Assembly (NCBI GenBank): GCA_003575245.1
Contig: NMQN01000807.1
Coordinates: 1-8,951 of the forward strand
Source of the DNA: Candidatus Atribacteria bacterium 1244-E10-H5-B2
Lineage (GTDB): Bacteria > Atribacterota > JS1 > SB-45 > 34-128
DNA: 8,951 nt
Direction: 5' to 3'
The notes under the pieces are model-generated. The model saw only the letters and a list, made by a program, of their open reading frames with translations. It did no database searches and was not told where the DNA came from. Position 1 is the stretch's first letter. Each line of letters opens with the position of its first letter. A program made the translations under genes and the position numbers. This document shows, piece by piece, positions 1 to 8,951 of this stretch.

Positions 1-108
1 TTCAAATTTCCCCTGCTTCTCCCTGAAAAGGTTAACAAAAAAGGAAAGAGGCAGGGTTACAGGCAACCCGGAGAACTCTGGAAAGAAAGCCGGATCACCG
101 AATAATTT
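1..108. repeat. Left copy of 108-bp flanking direct repeat (attL-like)
   Basis: Matches 8844-8951 at 107 of 108 positions; the only difference is T17 here versus C8860 there. As plus-strand RNA it folds well: CCCTGCTTCT (11-20) pairs with AGAGGCAGGG (47-56), and GGC ... GCC encloses a CCGGA-GAAC-TCTGG hairpin (63-92). Its right edge touches the stop codon of the 35-residue ORF. Because a tyrosine recombinase gene lies about 330 bp inside, the simplest reading is an attachment site or the end of an integrated element. The alternative is the terminal repeat of a circular molecule that was opened for assembly. No tRNA-like sequence is visible, so the target, if any, is not a tRNA 3' end. That the repeat exists is certain; its role is inferred. 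Confidence 0.7.
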
Positions 109-438: not shown

Positions 439-1017
439 TTATAAAACTAAGCCGTTTGCAGACTTTTCTATCTCATCATCATTTATGCCGATATAGCTTT
501 TCACAGACCCTAAATTACTATGCCCTAGCCTTTCGGCAATAAGGGATAATGAAGCCCCTTGCATCCTTAAATGATAACCTAGGGTCTTCCTTAAACTATG
601 GCAACCAACCCGATCGGTTATACCTACCTCTTGGCACCAATCCTTGACTAATTGCCAAGCTCCACAATTGGTTAGGGGTTTATTCCCTTTACGCTTTACT
701 GATTTAAATAGATAAGTATTAAGATCATAAATATCTGTATGGTTAAAATAGTATTGCAAAGCTTCTTTTGCCCCTGCATTTAAAGGGATTTTCCTACTTT
801 TACTAGTCTTTTTTTCCTTTACCCAGATATAATTCCTAATCTCCCCCCTGTTATCCCTTACATCCCTTACTTGCAGGTTAAGCAAATCGCTAATCCGTAA
901 GCCTGTATTAATGCCAATGGTAAACAGCAGGAAGTCTCTAGGGTTCTTCTTATCCTTCAAATACCCCTTGATCGCCCTAATCTTATTCTTATCCCTAATT
1001 GGTTCTACGAAATTCAT
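439..1017 (-). CDS. int: Compact tyrosine recombinase / phage-type integrase
   Basis: A 192-residue tyrosine site-specific recombinase that would cut and rejoin DNA at attachment sites through a 3'-phosphotyrosine intermediate, for integration or excision of this element. The catalytic set is complete: Arg41 in TGLRISDLL, a beta-hairpin lysine around Lys69-Lys73 in KEKKTSKSRKIPL, His140 and Arg143 in HSLRKT, His166 in LGHSNLGSVKSYI, and the nucleophile Tyr175. The protein is almost only the catalytic domain; the N-terminal core-binding and arm-binding domains of lambda-type integrases are absent or reduced to about 25 residues. Such short forms occur in phages and plasmids of low-GC bacteria, some acting as resolvases. 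The start at 1015-1017 has an AAGGAGGA site 8 nt upstream, and a consensus promoter lies at 1054-1082. It is the element's gene nearest a flanking repeat apart from two micro-ORFs. Confidence 0.93.
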   Translation of the reverse strand: MNFVEPIRDKNKIRAIKGYLKDKKNPRDFLLFTIGINTGLRISDLLNLQVRDVRDNRGEIRNYIWVKEKKTSKSRKIPLNAGAKEALQYYFNHTDIYDLNTYLFKSVKRKGNKPLTNCGAWQLVKDWCQEVGITDRVGCHSLRKTLGYHLRMQGASLSLIAERLGHSNLGSVKSYIGINDDEIEKSANGLVL

Positions 1018-1515: not shown

Positions 1516-3294
1516 TTATATATATTGCTCTTTTAAATCTTTCAGTAATTCTTTATTTATTAAGTATCCTTTTTTACCGACAGTAGCACTTTCAAAACCA
1601 AGTGATTCCATAACATAATGAAGCCCCATTGTATTTGTTTTTACTGATTCACTCCTCTCTTCATTAAGTAGTCCACAGCAATCGAGACTCCCAATAAAGT
1701 CTTTCCCATCCTCTACATAGTCCAATAATATCTTTACCACATCAGCCTGCAAACTGGTCTGTTTTATCTTCTTCGCTTTCTTTGCTAATAACTTAACAGT
1801 TTCTAAAAACTCTTTTTCCCTTGATGGTACAATTTCCATAACAACCCTATATAGTGGTTTTAATATTTGTCCAAGCCTCCTCCTCGCAAAGTGTTTTAAT
1901 TTTTTTAATTCTTTTCGTTTCCACCTATTGAGCAAAGTTGCCCTAAGAATTGTTAATTTATTCCTTAATTCTTCTGCGGTTTTTAAACTCTTCTCATTCT
2001 CCCTGATCATCGTTTCGACTGCTTCTCTAATGTTTTGTTTCATAATAAAGTGTATAGACCTACTTTTTATAGCTGTTGGCAAACCTAGTTCTGAACCCAT
2101 TGCTAAAGGCCCAAATACCTGATAATATTTAATTTGATTTTCTCTATCCTTATCCTCCATATCAATCCGTGGGACTGCAGACATCCTTTCATATCTGCAC
2201 TTTATCAGACTTATAATATCCGGATTTGCATTTCTACCCACTAGGGTTAACTCATCAACAACTAAAGTAGTCTTATAATATTGTGCACTACGGAACATCG
2301 TTGCAGGTGTGAGGTCTGTTTGTAATTCTGCTTTATAGGCAATATGCCGAAGGACGTCCCCAGCTTGAGATTTTCCAGTAGAATACTCCCCTTGAAAAAA
2401 GAGGAATGGAGTTACTTGTTCTAGATCGATCATATAAGTATGGAATACCCATAAAGCTAACAAAAAATAATCGTGTTCATTTGGCATTTCAACGTGTCGC
2501 CTAATAAATTTTTCTACATCTTTTAGCAGTTCTTCAAAATCAACTTTGTTACGGTCTACATCAAAAATGCTCTTTGTAATATAATTTAATAATAAGTCTT
2601 GTTTTGCTTTATAAGTTCTTTCCTCGATATCGACTGTTTCTGTAGAATAAAGCTTACCATCTTTATCAAATAGATAATGCACCTTATTATTAATTTTTAT
2701 TAAATTAATTAAATTTTCTGGACAACCTTTAGTCAATACTTTCTTCTCTTTTTCATATTTACTTTTTATATCTTTTGTTACATTTTTTATTAAATTTTTA
2801 GTTATCTTGACCCTGTCCCTTAAAGCTGTTATCCGGAATATTTTAGCTTTAACTACACTACCCATTGCTACTGTTTGTTCTTCTTCTTCTAACCTACAGA
2901 TATCAAAAGGTATCCTACTCTTTATTTCTTCTTTTGCTTTTAAATCGTACCCCTCCCAATTATTGATATCGGTATCAATGCCCTGCAAAATATCGCTTTT
3001 TATCTCTTTGTTCTCTCCTTCTAAAGTGTAATCCCTATTTGACTTTTTCTTATAACTTTTTGAATTACCTAATTCCCTGATATGCCTTTCCCAAGTAACC
3101 CCTTTTGCATCATGTCTAGAAATACAGTTATATTCACCTTTAATTACATTGATCCCCATAGAAGGGTGGACATCTTCGTGGTCAGGGTTTATGCAAGATG
3201 TCAAATACTGACCTTCTTTCCCTGTCCTTTTGGCTAAAACAGTTATTTTTTCTTGTGTCTGAAAGTGGCACAAATCAATGTATTCTTCCATCAT
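1516..3294 (-). CDS. Zinc-finger/AAA+ primase-helicase-like replication protein
   Basis: A 592-residue protein likely to unwind, and perhaps prime, DNA at the nearby iteron origin. N-terminus (about 30-75): a CHC2-primase-like zinc finger with Cys34, His39, Cys57 and His61 and the surrounding pattern NPDHEDVHPSMGIN ... GEYNC, degenerate compared with four-cysteine primase fingers. Residues 80-270 are charged and show no TOPRIM or archaeo-eukaryotic primase motif that I can identify. Residues about 275-420 form an ATPase: Walker A GEYSTGKS (302-309, Lys308), Walker B LVVDE (344-348), a sensor-like FGPLAMGSE (394-402) and a putative arginine finger in SRSIHF (Arg412). The C-terminus (about 500-592) looks like a winged helix, as in phage and plasmid primases. 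The start has a GGAAGGAG site. A 44-residue ORF lies 12 nt upstream. The ATPase family is clear; actual primase activity is not. Confidence 0.82.
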   Translation of the reverse strand: MMEEYIDLCHFQTQEKITVLAKRTGKEGQYLTSCINPDHEDVHPSMGINVIKGEYNCISRHDAKGVTWERHIRELGNSKSYKKKSNRDYTLEGENKEIKSDILQGIDTDINNWEGYDLKAKEEIKSRIPFDICRLEEEEQTVAMGSVVKAKIFRITALRDRVKITKNLIKNVTKDIKSKYEKEKKVLTKGCPENLINLIKINNKVHYLFDKDGKLYSTETVDIEERTYKAKQDLLLNYITKSIFDVDRNKVDFEELLKDVEKFIRRHVEMPNEHDYFLLALWVFHTYMIDLEQVTPFLFFQGEYSTGKSQAGDVLRHIAYKAELQTDLTPATMFRSAQYYKTTLVVDELTLVGRNANPDIISLIKCRYERMSAVPRIDMEDKDRENQIKYYQVFGPLAMGSELGLPTAIKSRSIHFIMKQNIREAVETMIRENEKSLKTAEELRNKLTILRATLLNRWKRKELKKLKHFARRRLGQILKPLYRVVMEIVPSREKEFLETVKLLAKKAKKIKQTSLQADVVKILLDYVEDGKDFIGSLDCCGLLNEERSESVKTNTMGLHYVMESLGFESATVGKKGYLINKELLKDLKEQYI

Positions 3295-3539: not shown

Positions 3540-3575
3540 AAAAAAGAGTTTACTTGGCGGTAGGCTCTTTTTTTT
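3540..3575 (-). terminator. Terminator-like hairpin after the capsid gene
   Basis: Minus-strand arms AAGAGCCTAC and GTAAACTCTT enclose a CGCCAA loop and are flanked by an A-run on one side and a T-run on the other. It lies within 3 nt of the capsid stop codon, so it should end the capsid transcript. On the minus strand two internal C-A mismatches weaken the stem; on the plus strand the same positions are G-U pairs, so it may terminate in both directions. Confidence 0.65.
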
Positions 3576-3577
3576 GT

Positions 3578-4795
3578 TTAAATACTTGGAACAGTTATAA
3601 AATTTGCCACTTCATTTCCATCGGCTAAAACTACGGTTGAATTGTCCAACGGTTGAGCATCTAGGTACATAGTAAATTTATAGCTGACAAGGTCTTTCTT
3701 CCAATTTTCACCACTTTTACCCTCATCTGACCTTATCATCATACCGTCCCTGGTAAGTACAGCATAACGCTTGAAATTGCATAACATAAGACTATGGGGA
3801 TCCCCCAACGATCCCATGTGCTGATTCATTATACATGGTCGCCCCAAGATAGTAAATTTCCCATCGGTTTCTTGGAATACTTTAATCCTCACAGCAGAAG
3901 TGCCAAGCTTGACATGGAGTTTTAAAAGTTGATCAATATTTTGGATACTACACAGGAAAATCGAAGTAGCCCAAGCATCAGGGATCAACTTTTTCGCCAT
4001 TGAAAAAATATTTTCAGCTACTAAAGTATCGCTATCCTGCCCTGTTTCTGCGGTAATCGTAAGGAGATCATTGCCATTTTGTACCCCCAAAGGTTCACCT
4101 GAACCAGTACCTTTTATTAGTAATTTGTTAATTTTGAAGGCTGCTGCGCTCCCAAAAATCCCGGAAATAAACGACCCCATATCTACCGGACTCCCGAAAA
4201 TAACTTCCTCTGAAAAATCGACCGTCTTCCCAATCTTATTAAGCTTCAATTTTACCTGTCTAACGGTCGGGGTATCTTCTCCATAAGTACCGCCTTCGGC
4301 TACTGCATCTATGTCTACATTGGCAACCTTATCACTAGAAAAATCATAACTTTGGATCGCGGGAACTGTTAAAGTTTCCCCCTGTCCACGCTTCAAAACC
4401 CAGCTCTGGCATAGAGGTCTTATAATCTCTTTTTCAGCCATAGCCTGGATTATTTCCGCTTGATATTTTGTCGGGATTAGGAAACTTCCGGGGGACTGCC
4501 CTATTAGTACATCTTTCTCGACCCGGCAATTTTCTAAGGCACTATAATTTTTCTCTGATATTGCCTTTAAGTAATGGCTAAAGTTATCAAATCCGCCGGC
4601 ATCCCTTAGTTCATAACTGTCAAAATTATGCAGTTTTTGCTCCGGATAACCCTGCATCCCGGTTAACATTTTGTTTGGTTTTACCCGATTGATCTGTTCA
4701 AATAACTCATCGGTGTAAGGCTTGATACTTTTCTGAACCTTCTGTTCTACTGCTTCACCAATAAGTTCTTTTACTCTGTCAATTGTCATTGACAT
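3578..4795 (-). CDS. HK97-fold major capsid protein
   Basis: A 405-residue protein that would assemble the icosahedral shell. From about residue 100 it follows the HK97-fold capsid family: GSFLIPTKYQAEIIQAMAEK (103-122, start of the N-arm/E-loop region), LTVPAI (142-147), the P-domain helix around 205-228, the typical GTGSGEPLGVQN (229-240), then the A-domain ending in DAQPLDNSTVVLAD (379-392). Residues 1-40 are helical and charged, a reduced scaffold-like delta region. No prohead protease gene is present here, so either the shell is not processed or a helper supplies the protease. The GTGxGxPLG signature and the nearby terminase favour a viral shell over an encapsulin. The start has AAGGATGTGAT, a one-base variant of the ideal ribosome binding site. 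It is preceded by a long structured leader and followed by a terminator. Confidence 0.92.
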   Translation of the reverse strand: MSMTIDRVKELIGEAVEQKVQKSIKPYTDELFEQINRVKPNKMLTGMQGYPEQKLHNFDSYELRDAGGFDNFSHYLKAISEKNYSALENCRVEKDVLIGQSPGSFLIPTKYQAEIIQAMAEKEIIRPLCQSWVLKRGQGETLTVPAIQSYDFSSDKVANVDIDAVAEGGTYGEDTPTVRQVKLKLNKIGKTVDFSEEVIFGSPVDMGSFISGIFGSAAAFKINKLLIKGTGSGEPLGVQNGNDLLTITAETGQDSDTLVAENIFSMAKKLIPDAWATSIFLCSIQNIDQLLKLHVKLGTSAVRIKVFQETDGKFTILGRPCIMNQHMGSLGDPHSLMLCNFKRYAVLTRDGMMIRSDEGKSGENWKKDLVSYKFTMYLDAQPLDNSTVVLADGNEVANFITVPSI

Positions 4796-5211
4796 GATTT
4801 ATCACATCCTTATAATAAAGATTTTAATTCATTTCTGAATCTGTGAATCTCTATCTCCAGTTAAGTGATAAATCATTTAGATGTATAGCTCTTACGGTAT
4901 AGTAGCCGATTTATCTATCTCATCTTAAAAATAACACAAACACCTGATAGTTTTTCTCTATTCAGTTGTCTCCTTTATCTTTTAGGATTTAAAGGGGGTA
5001 GCCAAAAGATTAAAAACTACCCCCTTGATACGAATTGAAGTTTAGTTGTCAGCTCCATAAAGGTTGTCTTACATATCGTAGACTGCAACTATAACCCCTC
5101 ACAGAAAAGAGATAACAGCCGAGAGCAAAGAATACCAGATATTAAGGGGAACAAAGAAAACCCTCATATCTAGTGGGGGGAACCCTCAGCTTTAGACATA
5201 GACCCCCCTAC
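4796..5211 (-). other. 416-nt gene-free structured leader between HTH gene and capsid gene
   Basis: No credible ORF lies here on either strand; the longest minus-strand candidates are about 22 codons without a ribosome binding site. The stretch is noticeably richer in G-runs and C-runs than its surroundings (GGGGGG at 5175-5180, CCCCCC at 5203-5208, GGGGG at 4994-4998, CCCCC at 5020-5024) and has several inverted repeats, including minus-strand AGATAT ... ATATCT (5145-5174 region). It should be transcribed from the promoter at 5719-5747 as the 5' region of the capsid message. It could be a structured untranslated leader, a separate small RNA, a packaging (pac/cos) site close to the terminase genes, or the remnant of a deleted gene. 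Confidence 0.5.
4977..5026 (-). ncRNA. Candidate H-type pseudoknot in the capsid leader
   Basis: On the minus strand a perfect 10-bp stem, AAGGGGGTAG (5026-5017) with CTACCCCCTT (5001-4992), closes a 15-nt loop. Seven loop bases, ATCTTTT (5010-5004), are exactly complementary to AAAAGAT (4983-4977) located 8 nt beyond the stem. The linkers of 6, 2 and 8 nt would allow an H-type pseudoknot. A Shine-Dalgarno-like AAAGGAG follows directly but has no ATG, GTG or TTG at a suitable distance. If real, this resembles riboswitch or frameshift-type pseudoknots. It is not followed by a good U-tract, so it is not a simple terminator. Confidence 0.45.
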
Positions 5212-5664
5212 CTAAAGTTTTTTAGCCTCCTCAAAATCCTTTTTAGCTTTTTCTGTCTCCCTGATCCTTTCAGCAGTTTTTTCCTCTGATTCAAATTCGG
5301 TTGACCTGACATTAATCTGGTTAGCTTTTTTAAGCTGTTCGATAATATTTTTTGTAAGATCGGCTATGATTAGTTCCTTGACCCTAAAAGCAAGCCACTC
5401 GACATTTGCCTCAAAAGTCCGCCTAATTGCTTCATTAACCTGACTTGCAAATTCATCTGGCTTTGTGAACCTACCACCATTTAGAAATTTAATGAGTTCT
5501 TTTTCTGCGACATAATATCGCATACCCACCTTAATGGCTTTAATTTTACCTTTTTTAAGGTATTCTCTTACCGATAACGGGGTAAGGTTAAGTATCTTTA
5601 CTAAATCTTCAACTATAAAGTATTTTTTGCCTTGAAAAATTTTAGTAGGTGGCATCCTCTCCAT
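5212..5664 (-). CDS. HTH (excisionase/MerR-like) protein with helical tail; regulator or small-terminase candidate
   Basis: A 150-residue protein with two parts. Residues about 14-64 are a helix-turn-helix of the excisionase/MerR-like class: KKYFIVEDLVKILNLTPLSV ... LKKGKIKAIKVGMRYYVAEKELIKFL. Residues 75-150 are long amphipathic helices rich in Glu and Lys (FEANVEWLAFRVKELI, then EEKTAERIRETEKAKKDFEE), probably a coiled-coil oligomerisation region. I place the start at the ATG at 5662-5664 because GGAGGTG lies 7 nt before it; the upstream in-frame ATG at 5683-5685 has no ribosome binding site. Lying between the terminase and capsid genes behind its own strong promoter, it could be a transcriptional regulator (AlpA-like), a small terminase subunit (HTH plus oligomerisation helices is that family's plan) or a scaffold-like protein. 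I cannot decide from sequence alone. Confidence 0.75.
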   Translation of the reverse strand: MERMPPTKIFQGKKYFIVEDLVKILNLTPLSVREYLKKGKIKAIKVGMRYYVAEKELIKFLNGGRFTKPDEFASQVNEAIRRTFEANVEWLAFRVKELIIADLTKNIIEQLKKANQINVRSTEFESEEKTAERIRETEKAKKDFEEAKKL

Positions 5665-5718
5665 CTCTCTACACCTCCATTTCATATATAATCCATCTTA
5701 CTTTGTTTTCTTTTATTT

Positions 5719-5747
5719 ATTATAATATATCTTTATTCAGAAGTCAA
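5719..5747 (-). promoter_or_regulatory. Strong promoter for the HTH-leader-capsid transcript
   Basis: Minus-strand TTGACT (5742-5747) and TATAAT (5719-5724) at exactly 17 bp spacing (5725-5741), immediately after the terminase stop codon. It gives the HTH and capsid genes independent, probably high-level transcription, as expected for an abundant structural protein. The -35 region lies in TTATTTGACT, a motif shared with the palindromes before the replication operon. Confidence 0.8.
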
Positions 5748-5754
5748 ATAAAGT

Positions 5755-7344
5755 TTATAACTGGTGATAGTTTTCGGGGAGTAGGTTATAATCATAATCA
5801 TCTTCAAAATCATCGTCTCCTCCGTGTGCTTCTATCAACCTGACCCGACAGCCTCCGGTAGATATACCACTATTTACTATCCCTTGAGCTGACATTGCCA
5901 GTGCTATCGAAATATCTATTTTAGATGAGGCTTTTGCTTTAATTAGTCTCCAACCTCTATTTGATTCTTTTGCCTTTGCACTAAGCAAATGCTTCCTTAG
6001 TTCCTTATGCTTGAAGAATACAATATTACCGCCACGGATTAAATCGTAAAGATTTTGAGACATCTGCGTTAACCGGTCAAGCGTCTGGGGGAATTCGGTT
6101 AATTTTAGCCCTTTATTAGCTAAGGTCTGTGCTGACCTGGTAAATTGATAAGGATCGAATAAAACCTCTGTTAGGTTAAAATTCTTAGCCAATTTCAGGA
6201 TATGTGCTTCAACCTGTTCTTCTAATTGTACCTCACGTCCTACTTTCCCCTGGAAGGTTTTACAATCAATGAGCTGAATCTTATTATCCTTCCTGGTAAG
6301 TGAAACGAGGGCGGTTGTATCATGTCGCAGTCCTATATCTACGCCGGTTATTATACTTATGCTTTTAGAGGGTAACGGTGGTCTTAGCTTATTATCTATA
6401 CAGGCGTCTAAATCTTCAGAGGTGATGAAGACTTCCATCCCACTTGTAAAATAATTATAATGGAACCTCTGAAAGGTGCCTTCCCGGAGCCTCCCCCTCT
6501 GCTGATCTAAATATTTTTTAGTCTGCCAGGGCATCCGGTTAGCTTCTTCCCCATCATCCCACCAAAAGTAAAATGAAGGATCGGGCTTCTTCTCCAAGTT
6601 CAACCCCTTGTTATATAACCCAAAAAGTAAATCATCTTCATCTGTATCGAAGCCGGCAGTCGAAACAATTAGAATTAAAGGGTGGGGTTTCGTGGGTGTC
6701 GTCGTTAATACCTCGAAAAAGTCCTTCATACCTTCGTAGCGGTACAAATAAAGCTCATCAAATATGACGAGGTCGGGATTTTGCCCTGCTGCACTAACGT
6801 CTGTCGCTAATACCCGAACCACCGAATTTTTATGCGGTATGGTAATCGAATCAGCAGTTATTTTGGCTTGTCGTCTCATCTTATCGTTCATTTGGATAGA
6901 CTTTTTTAGCTTGTCGAAAATGATCCAGCTTGCCATATCTTTATCGGCAGCGCAAAGTAAGATCTCCACATCTTCACCGGGTCGGATCCCTTGGGTAAAG
7001 AGGTACCAGGAGGCTATAAGTGAAGCTATGCAGGATTTTCCCGACTTTTTTGGTTCGCCTAAAAGTGCCATGGTGTAAGGTCTACTGCCATAAAATAGTG
7101 GTCGGAAAATTTTATCCTTCTGAAATTCTTGTAAAACTATCGGTCTCCTAGATTCTGGGATATAAAACTGTTCTTCGGCAAAGTTAATAATATCCTTCCT
7201 ATATTTTTGTATGGTAAAAAAGTCTGCAATAGGGGTCTTTTCTTTCTCCCTATGCCTCTTTAATCCTGCCTGTGTCCGTTCTTTAGCCTCCGGAGTGTTA
7301 GCTAAAAAAGATGATTTTGGTCTAAATTTTACGTTTTTTGCCAT
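5755..7344 (-). CDS. terL: Phage terminase large subunit (ATPase and nuclease)
   Basis: A 529-residue DNA-packaging motor that would cut the concatemer and pump DNA into the capsid through a portal. ATPase domain: Walker A GEPKKSGKS (96-104), Walker B DLVIFDE (191-197, Asp196 and Glu197) and coupling motif LILIVSTAG (223-231). RNase H-like nuclease domain: Asp336 in GVDIGLRHDTTAL, Asp397 in VLFDPYQF and Asp477 in KIDISIALAMS, so all three acidic metal ligands are present. Length is normal for the family and both domains look intact, which argues for function rather than decay. The ribosome binding site is weak; the gene starts 7 nt after the stop of a 52-residue basic ORF, suggesting translational coupling. 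No portal gene follows, and no small subunit precedes it, both of which are unusual. Confidence 0.95.
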   Translation of the reverse strand: MAKNVKFRPKSSFLANTPEAKERTQAGLKRHREKEKTPIADFFTIQKYRKDIINFAEEQFYIPESRRPIVLQEFQKDKIFRPLFYGSRPYTMALLGEPKKSGKSCIASLIASWYLFTQGIRPGEDVEILLCAADKDMASWIIFDKLKKSIQMNDKMRRQAKITADSITIPHKNSVVRVLATDVSAAGQNPDLVIFDELYLYRYEGMKDFFEVLTTTPTKPHPLILIVSTAGFDTDEDDLLFGLYNKGLNLEKKPDPSFYFWWDDGEEANRMPWQTKKYLDQQRGRLREGTFQRFHYNYFTSGMEVFITSEDLDACIDNKLRPPLPSKSISIITGVDIGLRHDTTALVSLTRKDNKIQLIDCKTFQGKVGREVQLEEQVEAHILKLAKNFNLTEVLFDPYQFTRSAQTLANKGLKLTEFPQTLDRLTQMSQNLYDLIRGGNIVFFKHKELRKHLLSAKAKESNRGWRLIKAKASSKIDISIALAMSAQGIVNSGISTGGCRVRLIEAHGGDDDFEDDYDYNLLPENYHQL

Positions 7345-7828: not shown

Positions 7829-8758
7829 TTAATGGTAAACATTAATTGCTAATTCATTAATTTTTACTGAATTTGCTTGTTTGCCAAAAGTATCGATCAA
7901 AGCATAATCGGAATGGTTTTGACCAGGAGAAAGGGTATAATTTTCATACCAGGAATCATAATAGATATTGCCATCGATACAATTTACAGTAAAATAAATC
8001 TTATAATCATATACAACTTCATTGCTATTATTTTCAATGGTATAATAGGCGTATACCATCGACCACTTTTCTAAATATTCATAATATTCTTGTTCCAAAT
8101 TGTCTAAGGTAATTACAACGTCTCCTGGTGGTTCAGGTTCGGACTCTGTTACAGTTATACACTTAGTCATTGAATCTGTAGCCCCTTTATTATCTGCTAC
8201 AATAAGTTCAACTTTATAACTTCCGATAGAAGTAAAAGTATGATTTACTATCTCTCCACTCCCCATATTCCCATCTTTAAAATTCCATGTATAACTTACA
8301 ATCGTTCCGTCTGGATCAGATGAACCTGAGGCGTTAAAATAGACTTCCAGAGGTTTTATTCCCGATGTGGGACTAGCAGTAAAACTTGCTGTGGGTGGGT
8401 GGTTAACCGCAATAGTAAAACTCTGGATATCACTTAATTCTCCATCAAACACTTTTACAGTAACTACATTATCCCCGACCTGCCCATAATACGGAACCCA
8501 ACTAATTACTCCGGTAAATTGATTAACCGACATATAAGTTGGATTAATTATCAAACTGTAAATTAGACTATCTCCATCGGGATCTGTTGCTTTTACTTTG
8601 TAAGTATAATCTTCTCCTACAGTTGCAGTAAGATTTGGAACTGATGTTATTTCCGGTGCCTCGTTCACTATAATTGGCGGTGTAGTTCCACCACAGCCTA
8701 CCAGTAAAGTTACAAATGCCACTACAAATACTAATACAAAAATTCTTTTACTTAACAT
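7829..8758 (-). CDS. Secreted lipoprotein with Ig-like, PKD and C-terminal beta-sandwich domains
   Basis: A 309-residue surface protein. Signal: KR at 4-5, hydrophobic core 6-20 and lipobox LLVGC with Cys22 as the lipidation site. Domains: an Ig-like/cadherin-type module (about 33-117) with TATVGEDYTYKVKATDPDGD; a PKD module (about 120-204) with ASFTASPTSGIKPLEVYF and the core YTWNFKDG, a variant of the usual WDFGDG; then about 215-309, a beta-rich FxLYD-like segment (YYTIENNSNEVVYDYKIYFT). These folds mediate protein or sugar binding outside the cell; no enzymatic motif is visible. AAGGAGG lies 9 nt before the start. It is the first gene inside the right repeat and is unlike phage structural genes, so it is either host-derived cargo altering the cell surface or a host gene bordering the element. 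Confidence 0.85.
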   Translation of the reverse strand: MLSKRIFVLVFVVAFVTLLVGCGGTTPPIIVNEAPEITSVPNLTATVGEDYTYKVKATDPDGDSLIYSLIINPTYMSVNQFTGVISWVPYYGQVGDNVVTVKVFDGELSDIQSFTIAVNHPPTASFTASPTSGIKPLEVYFNASGSSDPDGTIVSYTWNFKDGNMGSGEIVNHTFTSIGSYKVELIVADNKGATDSMTKCITVTESEPEPPGDVVITLDNLEQEYYEYLEKWSMVYAYYTIENNSNEVVYDYKIYFTVNCIDGNIYYDSWYENYTLSPGQNHSDYALIDTFGKQANSVKINELAINVYH

Positions 8759-8843: not shown

Positions 8844-8951
8844 TTCAAATTTCCCCTGCCTCTCCCTGAAAAGGTTAACAAAAAAGGAAAGAGGCAGGGT
8901 TACAGGCAACCCGGAGAACTCTGGAAAGAAAGCCGGATCACCGAATAATTT
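8844..8951. repeat. Right copy of 108-bp flanking direct repeat (attR-like)
   Basis: Same orientation as 1-108 and identical apart from C8860. In this copy the main stem CCCTGCCTCT (8854-8863) with AGAGGCAGGG (8890-8899) is fully Watson-Crick. It starts 85 bp upstream of the lipoprotein gene, so on the minus strand it lies in that gene's promoter/leader region, while its plus-strand RNA would read out of the window. The 85-bp gap (8759-8843) holds the ribosome binding site and no clear promoter. Confidence 0.7.

What the first reader, a model, noticed from the sequence alone, without database searches (positions are those of the whole stretch)
3578..7344. Capsid protein and terminase without portal, protease or tail: an ultra-minimal capsid-encoding satellite?
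The window holds an intact terminase large subunit and an intact HK97-fold capsid protein, plus integrase, helicase and origin, in under 9 kb, but none of the genes that normally lie between them: portal, prohead protease, connectors, tail. Known capsid-forming satellites (cf-PICIs) carry a fuller head module. Owning just the shell and the motor would let an element set its own capsid size and packaging specificity while borrowing portal, protease and tail from a helper. The terminase has all ATPase and nuclease residues and the capsid gene has its own promoter and terminator, which argues against simple decay.
Basis: partly seen in the sequence, partly recalled or inferred. Interest (0 to 1): 0.88.

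Follow-up and report, generated by a model that had tools for sequence, protein, structure and literature searches.

The report
Portal-less phage satellite with own capsid
This 8.8-kb DNA element appears to be a parasite of bacterial viruses that makes its own shell protein and DNA-packaging motor but lacks the gene for the portal through which DNA enters the shell, and it belongs to a family of such elements that share genes with full-size viruses.

Summary
The window is one whole 8951-bp contig whose ends repeat over 108 bp (one mismatch). It encodes TerL, an HTH protein, an HK97-fold capsid protein, a helicase-like protein, integrase and a PKD lipoprotein; no portal, protease or tail gene was found. 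It is not a lone remnant. I found 13 related contigs whose ends also repeat (7.6-17.2 kb without the repeat). Six portal families match none of the 13; between them the same searches find the portals of 14 portal-bearing relatives. The portal-less elements carry three sequence-unrelated capsid classes, or none that I could find. Some share their integrase (best matches 86-91% identical), a tape-measure gene or a structured noncoding element with portal-bearing phages; one satellite and three phages come from one metagenome. The TerL C-terminal tail, the portal tether in lambda, is exchanged independently of the TerL core, mostly within a capsid class, and in two elements it matches a portal-bearing phage. 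Best reading: a satellite that makes its own shell and motor and borrows portal and tail from a helper. cf-PICIs carry their own portal, so this is a new variant of phage satellite. Helper dependence, excision and particles are inferred, not shown.

The parts
439..1017 (-). tyrosine integrase, short (192 aa)
   Evidence: PF00589 5.9e-28; phrog_216 3.1e-53; 49-53% identical to integrases of portal-bearing phages, 59% to portal-less L095
1352..1500 (.). two arrays of 9-bp repeats in opposite sense (AGTTAGTCT copies about 1352-1387; GAGACTAAG copies about 1438-1500), possible replication origin beside the helicase-like gene
   Evidence: direct repeat families D1 and D3; complementarity of the units read from the sequence; origin role inferred
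1516..3294 (-). helicase-like replication protein (weak DnaG-type Zn ribbon at N-terminus, Walker A), 592 aa
   Evidence: PF01807 E 0.017, below cut-off; phrog_5311 helicase 1.6e-4; 93% identical homologue on an 8862-bp contig
3540..3573 (.). terminator-like hairpin downstream of the capsid gene
   Evidence: where it is listed on the + strand; the number of such sites is not above chance
3578..4795 (-). HK97-fold major capsid protein, 405 aa, with N-terminal helical (delta-like) region
   Evidence: PF05065 1.3e-25; AlphaFold model pLDDT 65, best PDB match 7.1e-14
4793..4984 (-). capsid mRNA leader: predicted hairpin that pairs ribosome-binding site and start codon
   Evidence: 82% DNA identity to L003 leader although the capsid proteins share 31%; fold z -5.5; pair change G-C to A-U between window and L003, read; L003 alone folds weakly, z -1.4
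5212..5685 (-). HTH_17 protein, 157 aa (Xis/MerR-like HTH plus long helices); candidate small terminase or regulator
   Evidence: PF12728 1.8e-8; model pLDDT 86; best PDB fold matches BldC and Xis, E 0.05, i.e. weak
5755..7344 (-). terminase large subunit, 529 aa
   Evidence: phrog_9 2.8e-58; PDB entry 6z6d 'Terminase large subunit' matched by profile, 9.7e-31
5755..5892 (-). TerL C-terminal tail (last 45 aa, ends LLPENYHQL), candidate portal tether
   Evidence: tail shared with TerLs of a different core: L003, P0105, P0110
7352..7540 (-). small basic ORF, 62 aa, upstream of TerL
   Evidence: phrog_22495 9.2e-5
7829..8758 (-). PKD/Ig-domain lipoprotein, 309 aa, cargo-like
   Evidence: PF18911 1.8e-23, PF05345 3.3e-13; lipobox LVGCG read from the sequence
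1..108 (-). first copy of the end repeat; contains structured noncoding element R1
8844..8951 (-). second copy of the end repeat (one mismatch); contains R1, upstream of the lipoprotein-TerL gene run

Best explanation
An integrative phage satellite with a probably circular form of about 8.84 kb. It excises with its own integrase and replicates with its own helicase-like protein and origin. It makes its own HK97-fold shell protein and its own terminase motor. It takes the portal, and then protease, connectors and tail, from a co-resident tailed phage. The shell protein would build a small head on the helper's portal, and the satellite's TerL, through a C-terminal tail fitted to that portal, would pack satellite DNA. 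Shown: gene content; 14 contigs with repeated ends and no portal found (window included); different capsid classes in them; shared integrase, noncoding element and, in L001, tape measure with portal-bearing phages; exchange of the TerL tail. Inferred: excision, helper dependence, use of a foreign portal, small head (T=3 or below), function of the tail.
For: No match to six portal families in 13 relatives with repeated ends, while portal-bearing relatives score: 12 of 12 by phrog_113, L015 by PF04860 and phrog_12, L176 by phrog_64. In 6 of the 13 (L003, L008, L013, L014, L095, L098) each ORF of 250 aa or more is assigned to TerL, capsid, protease or replication. Three capsid classes: PF05065/phrog_10 (window, L001, L002, L003, L095), Phage_cap_E/phrog_29 (L008, L009, L010, L092), phrog_334/1357 (L014, L096). 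Integrases of L008, L092 and L002 fall among those of portal-bearing phages, best matches 91%, 87.5% and 86%. The L001 tape measure is 50-51% identical over 333 aa to phage tape measures. L092 and phages L099, L101, L176 come from one metagenome (contig names). The TerL tail is exchanged against the core; L013's tail matches the phages', L095's that of portal-bearing L015. Element R1 is shared by satellites and phages.
Against: No particle, host or helper was observed. Among records whose neighbourhood I could read, no portal-bearing phage has a close relative of this capsid protein or this TerL tail. The phages sharing the integrase have a different capsid class (phrog_1005), so their portal may not fit this shell. 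Tail and capsid do not always go together: the window and L001 capsids are 67% identical, yet their tails score 24, no better than shuffled tails (median 21, 95% at 31). The window's contig ends differ by one base, so closure is not strictly proven. The HTH gene was recognised in 9 of the 14 elements only (clusters C14/C15), and whether it is a small terminase is undecided. L098 has no recognised integrase.
Confidence: 0.68

Rival explanations
1. The capsid protein does not build the whole shell but mixes into the helper's shell and makes it smaller, as Ccm of SaPIbov5 does.
For: Ccm is a satellite-coded capsid homologue used with the helper's portal and shell protein (PMC8569155, passages). 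L013, with no capsid gene found, carries a stretch like the C-terminus of the phages' protease, so some members may remodel helper heads.
Against: Ccm resembles its helper's capsid protein. The phages found here that share the integrase have capsid proteins of another class (phrog_1005); beyond the first 22 hits, homologues of the window's capsid protein are at most 27% identical.
Confidence: 0.17
2. Packaging without a portal: TerL docks directly on the satellite's own shell by its tail, and no foreign portal is used.
For: No portal found in any of the 14 contigs with repeated ends; the TerL tail is exchanged independently of the core.
Against: TerL C-termini are assigned to portal docking in lambda, D6E and T4 (PMC9026076, PMC5727402, passages). 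L013 and L095, in which no portal was found, carry tails of portal-bearing phages, which points to portal docking.
Confidence: 0.05
3. A decayed prophage or an incomplete contig of an ordinary phage.
For: The contig is short, the end repeat has one mismatch, and the closest capsid relative (95%) lies on a longer contig of 17,992 bp that I could not read.
Against: Intact genes; a sibling contig of 8862 bp with a 90% identical capsid protein and, on a contig of the same length, a 93% identical helicase-like protein; 13 relatives with repeated ends, TerL and no portal found, 12 of them with integrase.
Confidence: 0.06
4. A self-sufficient very small virus with an unrecognised portal or entry system.
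For: Small closed contigs with terminase or capsid genes were taken as small tailed-phage candidates in gut data (PMC7762592, passages and first part of the discussion).
Against: No ORF large enough for a portal remains in the window; no tail or lysis family matched; close gene sharing with portal-bearing phages.
Confidence: 0.04

Closest known systems
Capsid-forming PICIs (cf-PICIs)
   Same: Integrative satellite with its own capsid protein and large terminase, using helper tails. The cf-PICI EcCI2 capsid is among the best fold matches (rank 6).
   Different: cf-PICIs code for portal, protease and connectors (definition as quoted in PMC10690885, passages); in this family no portal was found, and in the window no protease or connector.
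SaPIbov5 (capsid homologue Ccm)
   Same: Satellite capsid protein used with a helper-supplied portal (PMC8569155, passages).
   Different: As I recall, SaPIbov5 does not carry its own large terminase (no call tested this); Ccm resembles its helper's capsid protein, which was not found here.
MulchRoom and MiniFlayer Streptomyces satellites
   Same: Satellites with their own head and packaging genes.
   Different: They code for portal, scaffold and head-to-tail adapter and lack key replication genes (PMC10690885, passages); here the portal is missing and a helicase-like gene present.
Small circular tailed-phage candidates of gut metagenomes
   Same: Contigs with direct terminal repeats and phage marker genes; nine of 7.3-8.5 kb coded for capsid proteins; a few had no annotated capsid or portal and were allowed to be satellites (PMC7762592, passages and first part of the discussion).
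   Different: Read mainly as tiny phages. Whether their capsid-coding genomes have portals I did not see; in the parts read there is no helper link or exchange of head genes.
Tycheposons and VEIMEs
   Same: Environmental elements mobilised in phage particles (mentioned in PMC11389934 and PMC10803314, passages).
   Different: Gene content could not be compared: the tycheposon paper, looked up by DOI, is not held, and no VEIME source paper was among the rows listed.

Membership tests
Phage satellite (in general) | Lacks genes needed to complete a particle | tested here: met
   No portal, protease, connector or tail family matched in the window and no unassigned ORF of 105 aa or more
Phage satellite (in general) | Depends on a helper phage | not testable with these tools
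   Only indirect: integrase, tape measure (L001) and R1 shared with phages
cf-PICI | Codes for own portal protein | tested here: not met
   relatives
cf-PICI | Codes for own capsid protein and TerL | tested here: met
cf-PICI | Codes for protease and head-tail connectors | tested here: not met
   none among 8 ORFs; a protease-like gene occurs in relatives L098 and L115
cf-PICI | Codes for small terminase | tested here: inconclusive
   HTH protein beside TerL; the L008 copy hits phrog_57 terminase small subunit at 1.1e-5, the window copy does not; fold matches unspecific; a similar HTH lies between portal and head genes in phage L176
SaPIbov5-type satellite | Capsid protein homologous to the helper's | tested here: inconclusive
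   Phages sharing the integrase have another capsid class; true helper unknown
Self-sufficient small tailed phage | Portal and tail genes present | tested here: not met

The most novel reading that the evidence does not exclude
A family of satellites defined by always borrowing the portal: capsid, scaffold, protease and even tape-measure or tail genes come and go, but not the portal, and the TerL C-terminal tail is swapped to fit whichever portal is used. In the boldest form, the window's type builds HK97-fold heads of T=3 or smaller around a foreign portal, the size class described as missing among tailed phages. (Lowered from 0.40 to 0.35 on recheck, because the tails of window and L001 do not match although their capsids do.)
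Probability: 0.35. Interest if true: 0.85.

Novelty: new variant of a known kind. Interest (0 to 1): 0.72.

Why it matters
Known satellites use the helper's shell, shrink it, or make complete heads and steal only tails. A family that makes shell and motor but not the vertex joining them would show that a portal can work with a foreign shell, and that motor-portal fit can be set by a short exchangeable tail. It would also offer natural 8-9 kb candidates for the predicted but unseen small HK97-fold heads, and it gives a simple search rule (contig with repeated ends, TerL plus capsid, no portal) for finding satellites in uncultured bacteria.

Tried and rejected
Host: no genome is held for the window. 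The single genome scan with the TerL alignment gave one distant hit in a Nitrospira assembly; none of the six neighbouring proteins scanned there matched a capsid or portal family. Database names 'Candidatus Atribacteria' for two TerL relatives (82% and 49% identical) are the only host hint.

A pattern scan for the YHQ-type TerL tail in viral contigs gave 4 matches, none in a contig with a recognised TerL. Rfam has no match at E up to 1 in the window or in six relatives. The idea that L001 shortens its tape measure was dropped: 645 aa against 668 aa. Defence-gene models (PADLOC) gave only weak matches to the window's HTH protein (9.5e-5 and 8.1e-4) and none to the other four window proteins given.

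Rows dropped or limited. L012 was first counted with the small elements, then dropped: it is a 4.2-kb fragment with a second, phage-type terminase. L115 has no end repeat and is not among the 13. The portal-bearing group was recognised by its portal cluster before the family searches, so those hits are a sensitivity check, not an independent count. Repeated ends could not be seen in loci that the 10-kb flank limit cut short, so larger closed phages would be missed. My end-repeat test allowed 2% mismatches (reused); exactness was checked for L001 only. L114 is a distant member (TerL 32%, long branch); no capsid gene was recognised in it. In the tail test L010, L092 and L098 could not be split by the script and were left out.
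Full report
What is there. The window is a whole contig: the protein database lists two predictions of its capsid protein on a contig of 8951 bp (P0001, P0002). Its ends repeat over 108 bp with one mismatch. The genes lie on the minus strand in the order PKD lipoprotein, small basic ORF, TerL, HTH protein, capsid protein, helicase-like protein, integrase. The capsid model is of moderate confidence (pLDDT 65), but its PDB matches are HK97-fold heads: Mycofy1 first, the cf-PICI EcCI2 at rank 6, HK97 itself at ranks 10 and 12; encapsulins, which share the fold, appear from rank 8. TerL matches PDB entry 6z6d by profile (9.7e-31), which I recall to be the HK97 terminase. No ORF outside the named genes reaches 105 aa, so there is no room for a portal.

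It is one of a family. Of the 52 capsid homologues, 2 are the window's own and the next 20 are 37-95% identical. Of these 20, 6 have a longest contig of 8.3-9.6 kb (8862, 9029, 8913, 9031, 9577, 8320), 1 of 17,992 bp, and 13 of under 8 kb. A 93% identical homologue of the helicase-like protein has a longest contig of 8862 bp, the same length as for a 90% identical capsid protein, so probably the same element. Scans of IMG/VR with capsid and TerL queries filled a set in which 14 of 159 sequences held (some overlapping) have repeated ends, the window included: L001, L002, L003, L008, L009, L010, L013, L014, L092 (the full record of L011), L095, L096, L098, L114. Lengths without the repeat run from 7.6 to 17.2 kb; window, L002 and L001 have 8843, 8839 and 8888 bp. 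Loci cut by the flank limit cannot show end repeats. Of the 13 relatives 12 have a recognised integrase, L098 being the exception; the HTH gene is recognised in 9 of the 14 elements (clusters C14 and C15).

No portal. PF04860, phrog_113 and PF05133 were searched over 28 records, and phrog_64, phrog_12 and PF05136 over 16 records. The 13 relatives with repeated ends, and L115, gave no match in any of the six. Controls: phrog_113 found 12 of 12 phage-type records, PF04860 and phrog_12 found L015, phrog_64 found L176; PF05133 and PF05136 found none of these records and rang only in control genomes. PF04860 missed 6 of the 12 phrog_113-type portals at E 0.001, so one family alone would not have been enough. 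In 6 of the 13 (L003, L008, L013, L014, L095, L098) each ORF of 250 aa or more is assigned, so nothing of portal size is left over; in L096 the only other one, 260 aa, has no family match but clusters with a replication-like protein of L009.

Head genes vary, the portal does not appear. PF05065/phrog_10 capsid: window, L001, L002, L003, L095. Phage_cap_E/phrog_29 capsid: L008, L009, L010, L092, with a scaffold-like gene (phrog_172 in L008; same cluster in the others). phrog_334/1357 capsid: L014, L096. L098 has two protease-like genes and no capsid gene found; in L013 and L114 no capsid gene was recognised. L001 has a tape measure, and L092 a tape measure and a tail-like protein, still without portal.

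Links to portal-bearing phages. Contigs L097, L099-L106, L108-L110 and L118 share the TerL and portal clusters. In L103 the genes after TerL are portal (phrog_113, 6.1e-71), protease, scaffold and capsid phrog_1005. Integrases of L008, L092 and L002 sit among the phages' integrases (98/99 support); best matches are 91% (L008 to L109), 87.5% (L092 to L108) and 86% (L002 to L118). The window's integrase is 49-53% identical to theirs. In the TerL tree the portal-less label needs two changes, because L002 TerL is sister to the phages' TerL (100/100); in the integrase tree two are needed, but one is not ruled out; several long branches make both trees rough. The L001 tape measure (645 aa) matches phage tape measures of 668 aa over 333 residues at 50-51%. 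L092, L099, L101 and L176 bear the same metagenome number, 3300028837.

The TerL tail is a moving part. Cutting TerL after its last conserved helix (core counted from residue 61): the window's core is 59% identical to L008 but the tails do not match, whereas with L003, P0105 and P0110 the core is 45-47% and the tails share 17 of 27, 24 of 36 and 20 of 21 aligned residues. P0105 and the capsid P0003 (95% to the window's) bear source numbers 14595 and 14597 and both have a longest contig of 17,992 bp. L002 has a core 70% identical to phage L103 but a tail like L003. L013, with no capsid gene found, has 18 of 27 tail residues as in phage L103, and a 217-aa protein with a 35-42 aa stretch 50-57% identical to the C-terminus of the phages' protease. 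L095's tail scores 54 with that of L015, a portal-bearing phage of the same capsid family; shuffled tails score 21 at the median and 40 at most. Over pairs with core identity under 47%, same-class tails score higher (7 pairs, mean 43.9) than different-class tails (71 pairs, mean 26.7); 6 of 2000 label shuffles reach this. Against a strict rule: window-L001 (capsids 67% identical) scores 24, window-L095 23 and L001-L095 25, all within the shuffled range. Related phages are among the rows, so the shuffle count is a guide, not a probability. In lambda the TerL C-terminus is a portal-binding tether (PMC9026076, passages); for D6E and T4 the C-terminal segment is assigned to portal docking (PMC5727402, passages).

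How it probably works. Integrase and helicase-like protein give excision and replication; the shell protein, with an N-terminal helical region that may act as scaffold, assembles around a helper portal; TerL docks by its tail; the helper's tail completes the particle. An 8.8-kb monomer would fit the range given for T=3 heads, 8.1-17.1 kb (PMC7762592, first part of the discussion). These steps are inference.

What is known. cf-PICIs carry portal, protease and connectors (PMC10690885, passages). SaPIbov5 Ccm shows a satellite capsid protein used with a helper portal (PMC8569155, passages). In nine searches of open papers (two of them aimed at Atribacteria) the listed titles and abstract starts named no portal-less satellite with its own capsid and TerL; lists were capped and most papers were not opened. 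The tycheposon and cf-PICI papers looked up by DOI are not held, so earlier description cannot be excluded.

Noticed in passing
window 1-108 and 8844-8951 (-); L008 2896-3001; L013 2942-3043; L095 1986-2086; L100 2958-3052; L101 3308-3408; L109 4358-4459: A noncoding element of about 105 nt with two predicted helices, shared by satellites and portal-bearing phages, without Rfam match. In these four satellites it lies between integrase and TerL. A pattern scan found it in 10 viral contigs; the four not already held share genes with these phages.
   Followed up: partly
window 4793-4984; L003 2717-2902: The capsid gene's leader is more conserved (82%) than the capsid gene and can fold so that the start codon is paired, with a compensating pair change between the two; possible translational switch (L003 folds weakly).
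   Followed up: partly
L013 5908-6561: 217-aa charged protein with a stretch like the C-terminus of the phages' protease, in an element without a recognised capsid gene: possible head-remodelling mimic.
   Followed up: partly
L098 1-13313: Contig with repeated ends holding two diverged copies (59% in the protease-like protein) of a TerL-protease module, as if two satellites were joined.
   Followed up: no
L012 286-4177: A satellite-type TerL and HTH gene directly upstream of a phage small and large terminase of another class; its TerL is 81% identical in DNA to that of satellite L009.
   Followed up: partly
L008 1469-2140: Protein matching candidate defence models PDC-M30B and PDC-M41B (1.2e-33 and 1.4e-33); clustered with phage proteins (C8).
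   Followed up: no
window 7829-8758: Secreted PKD/Ig-domain lipoprotein at the place, upstream of TerL, where L001 has its tape measure; possible surface cargo or exclusion gene.
   Followed up: no
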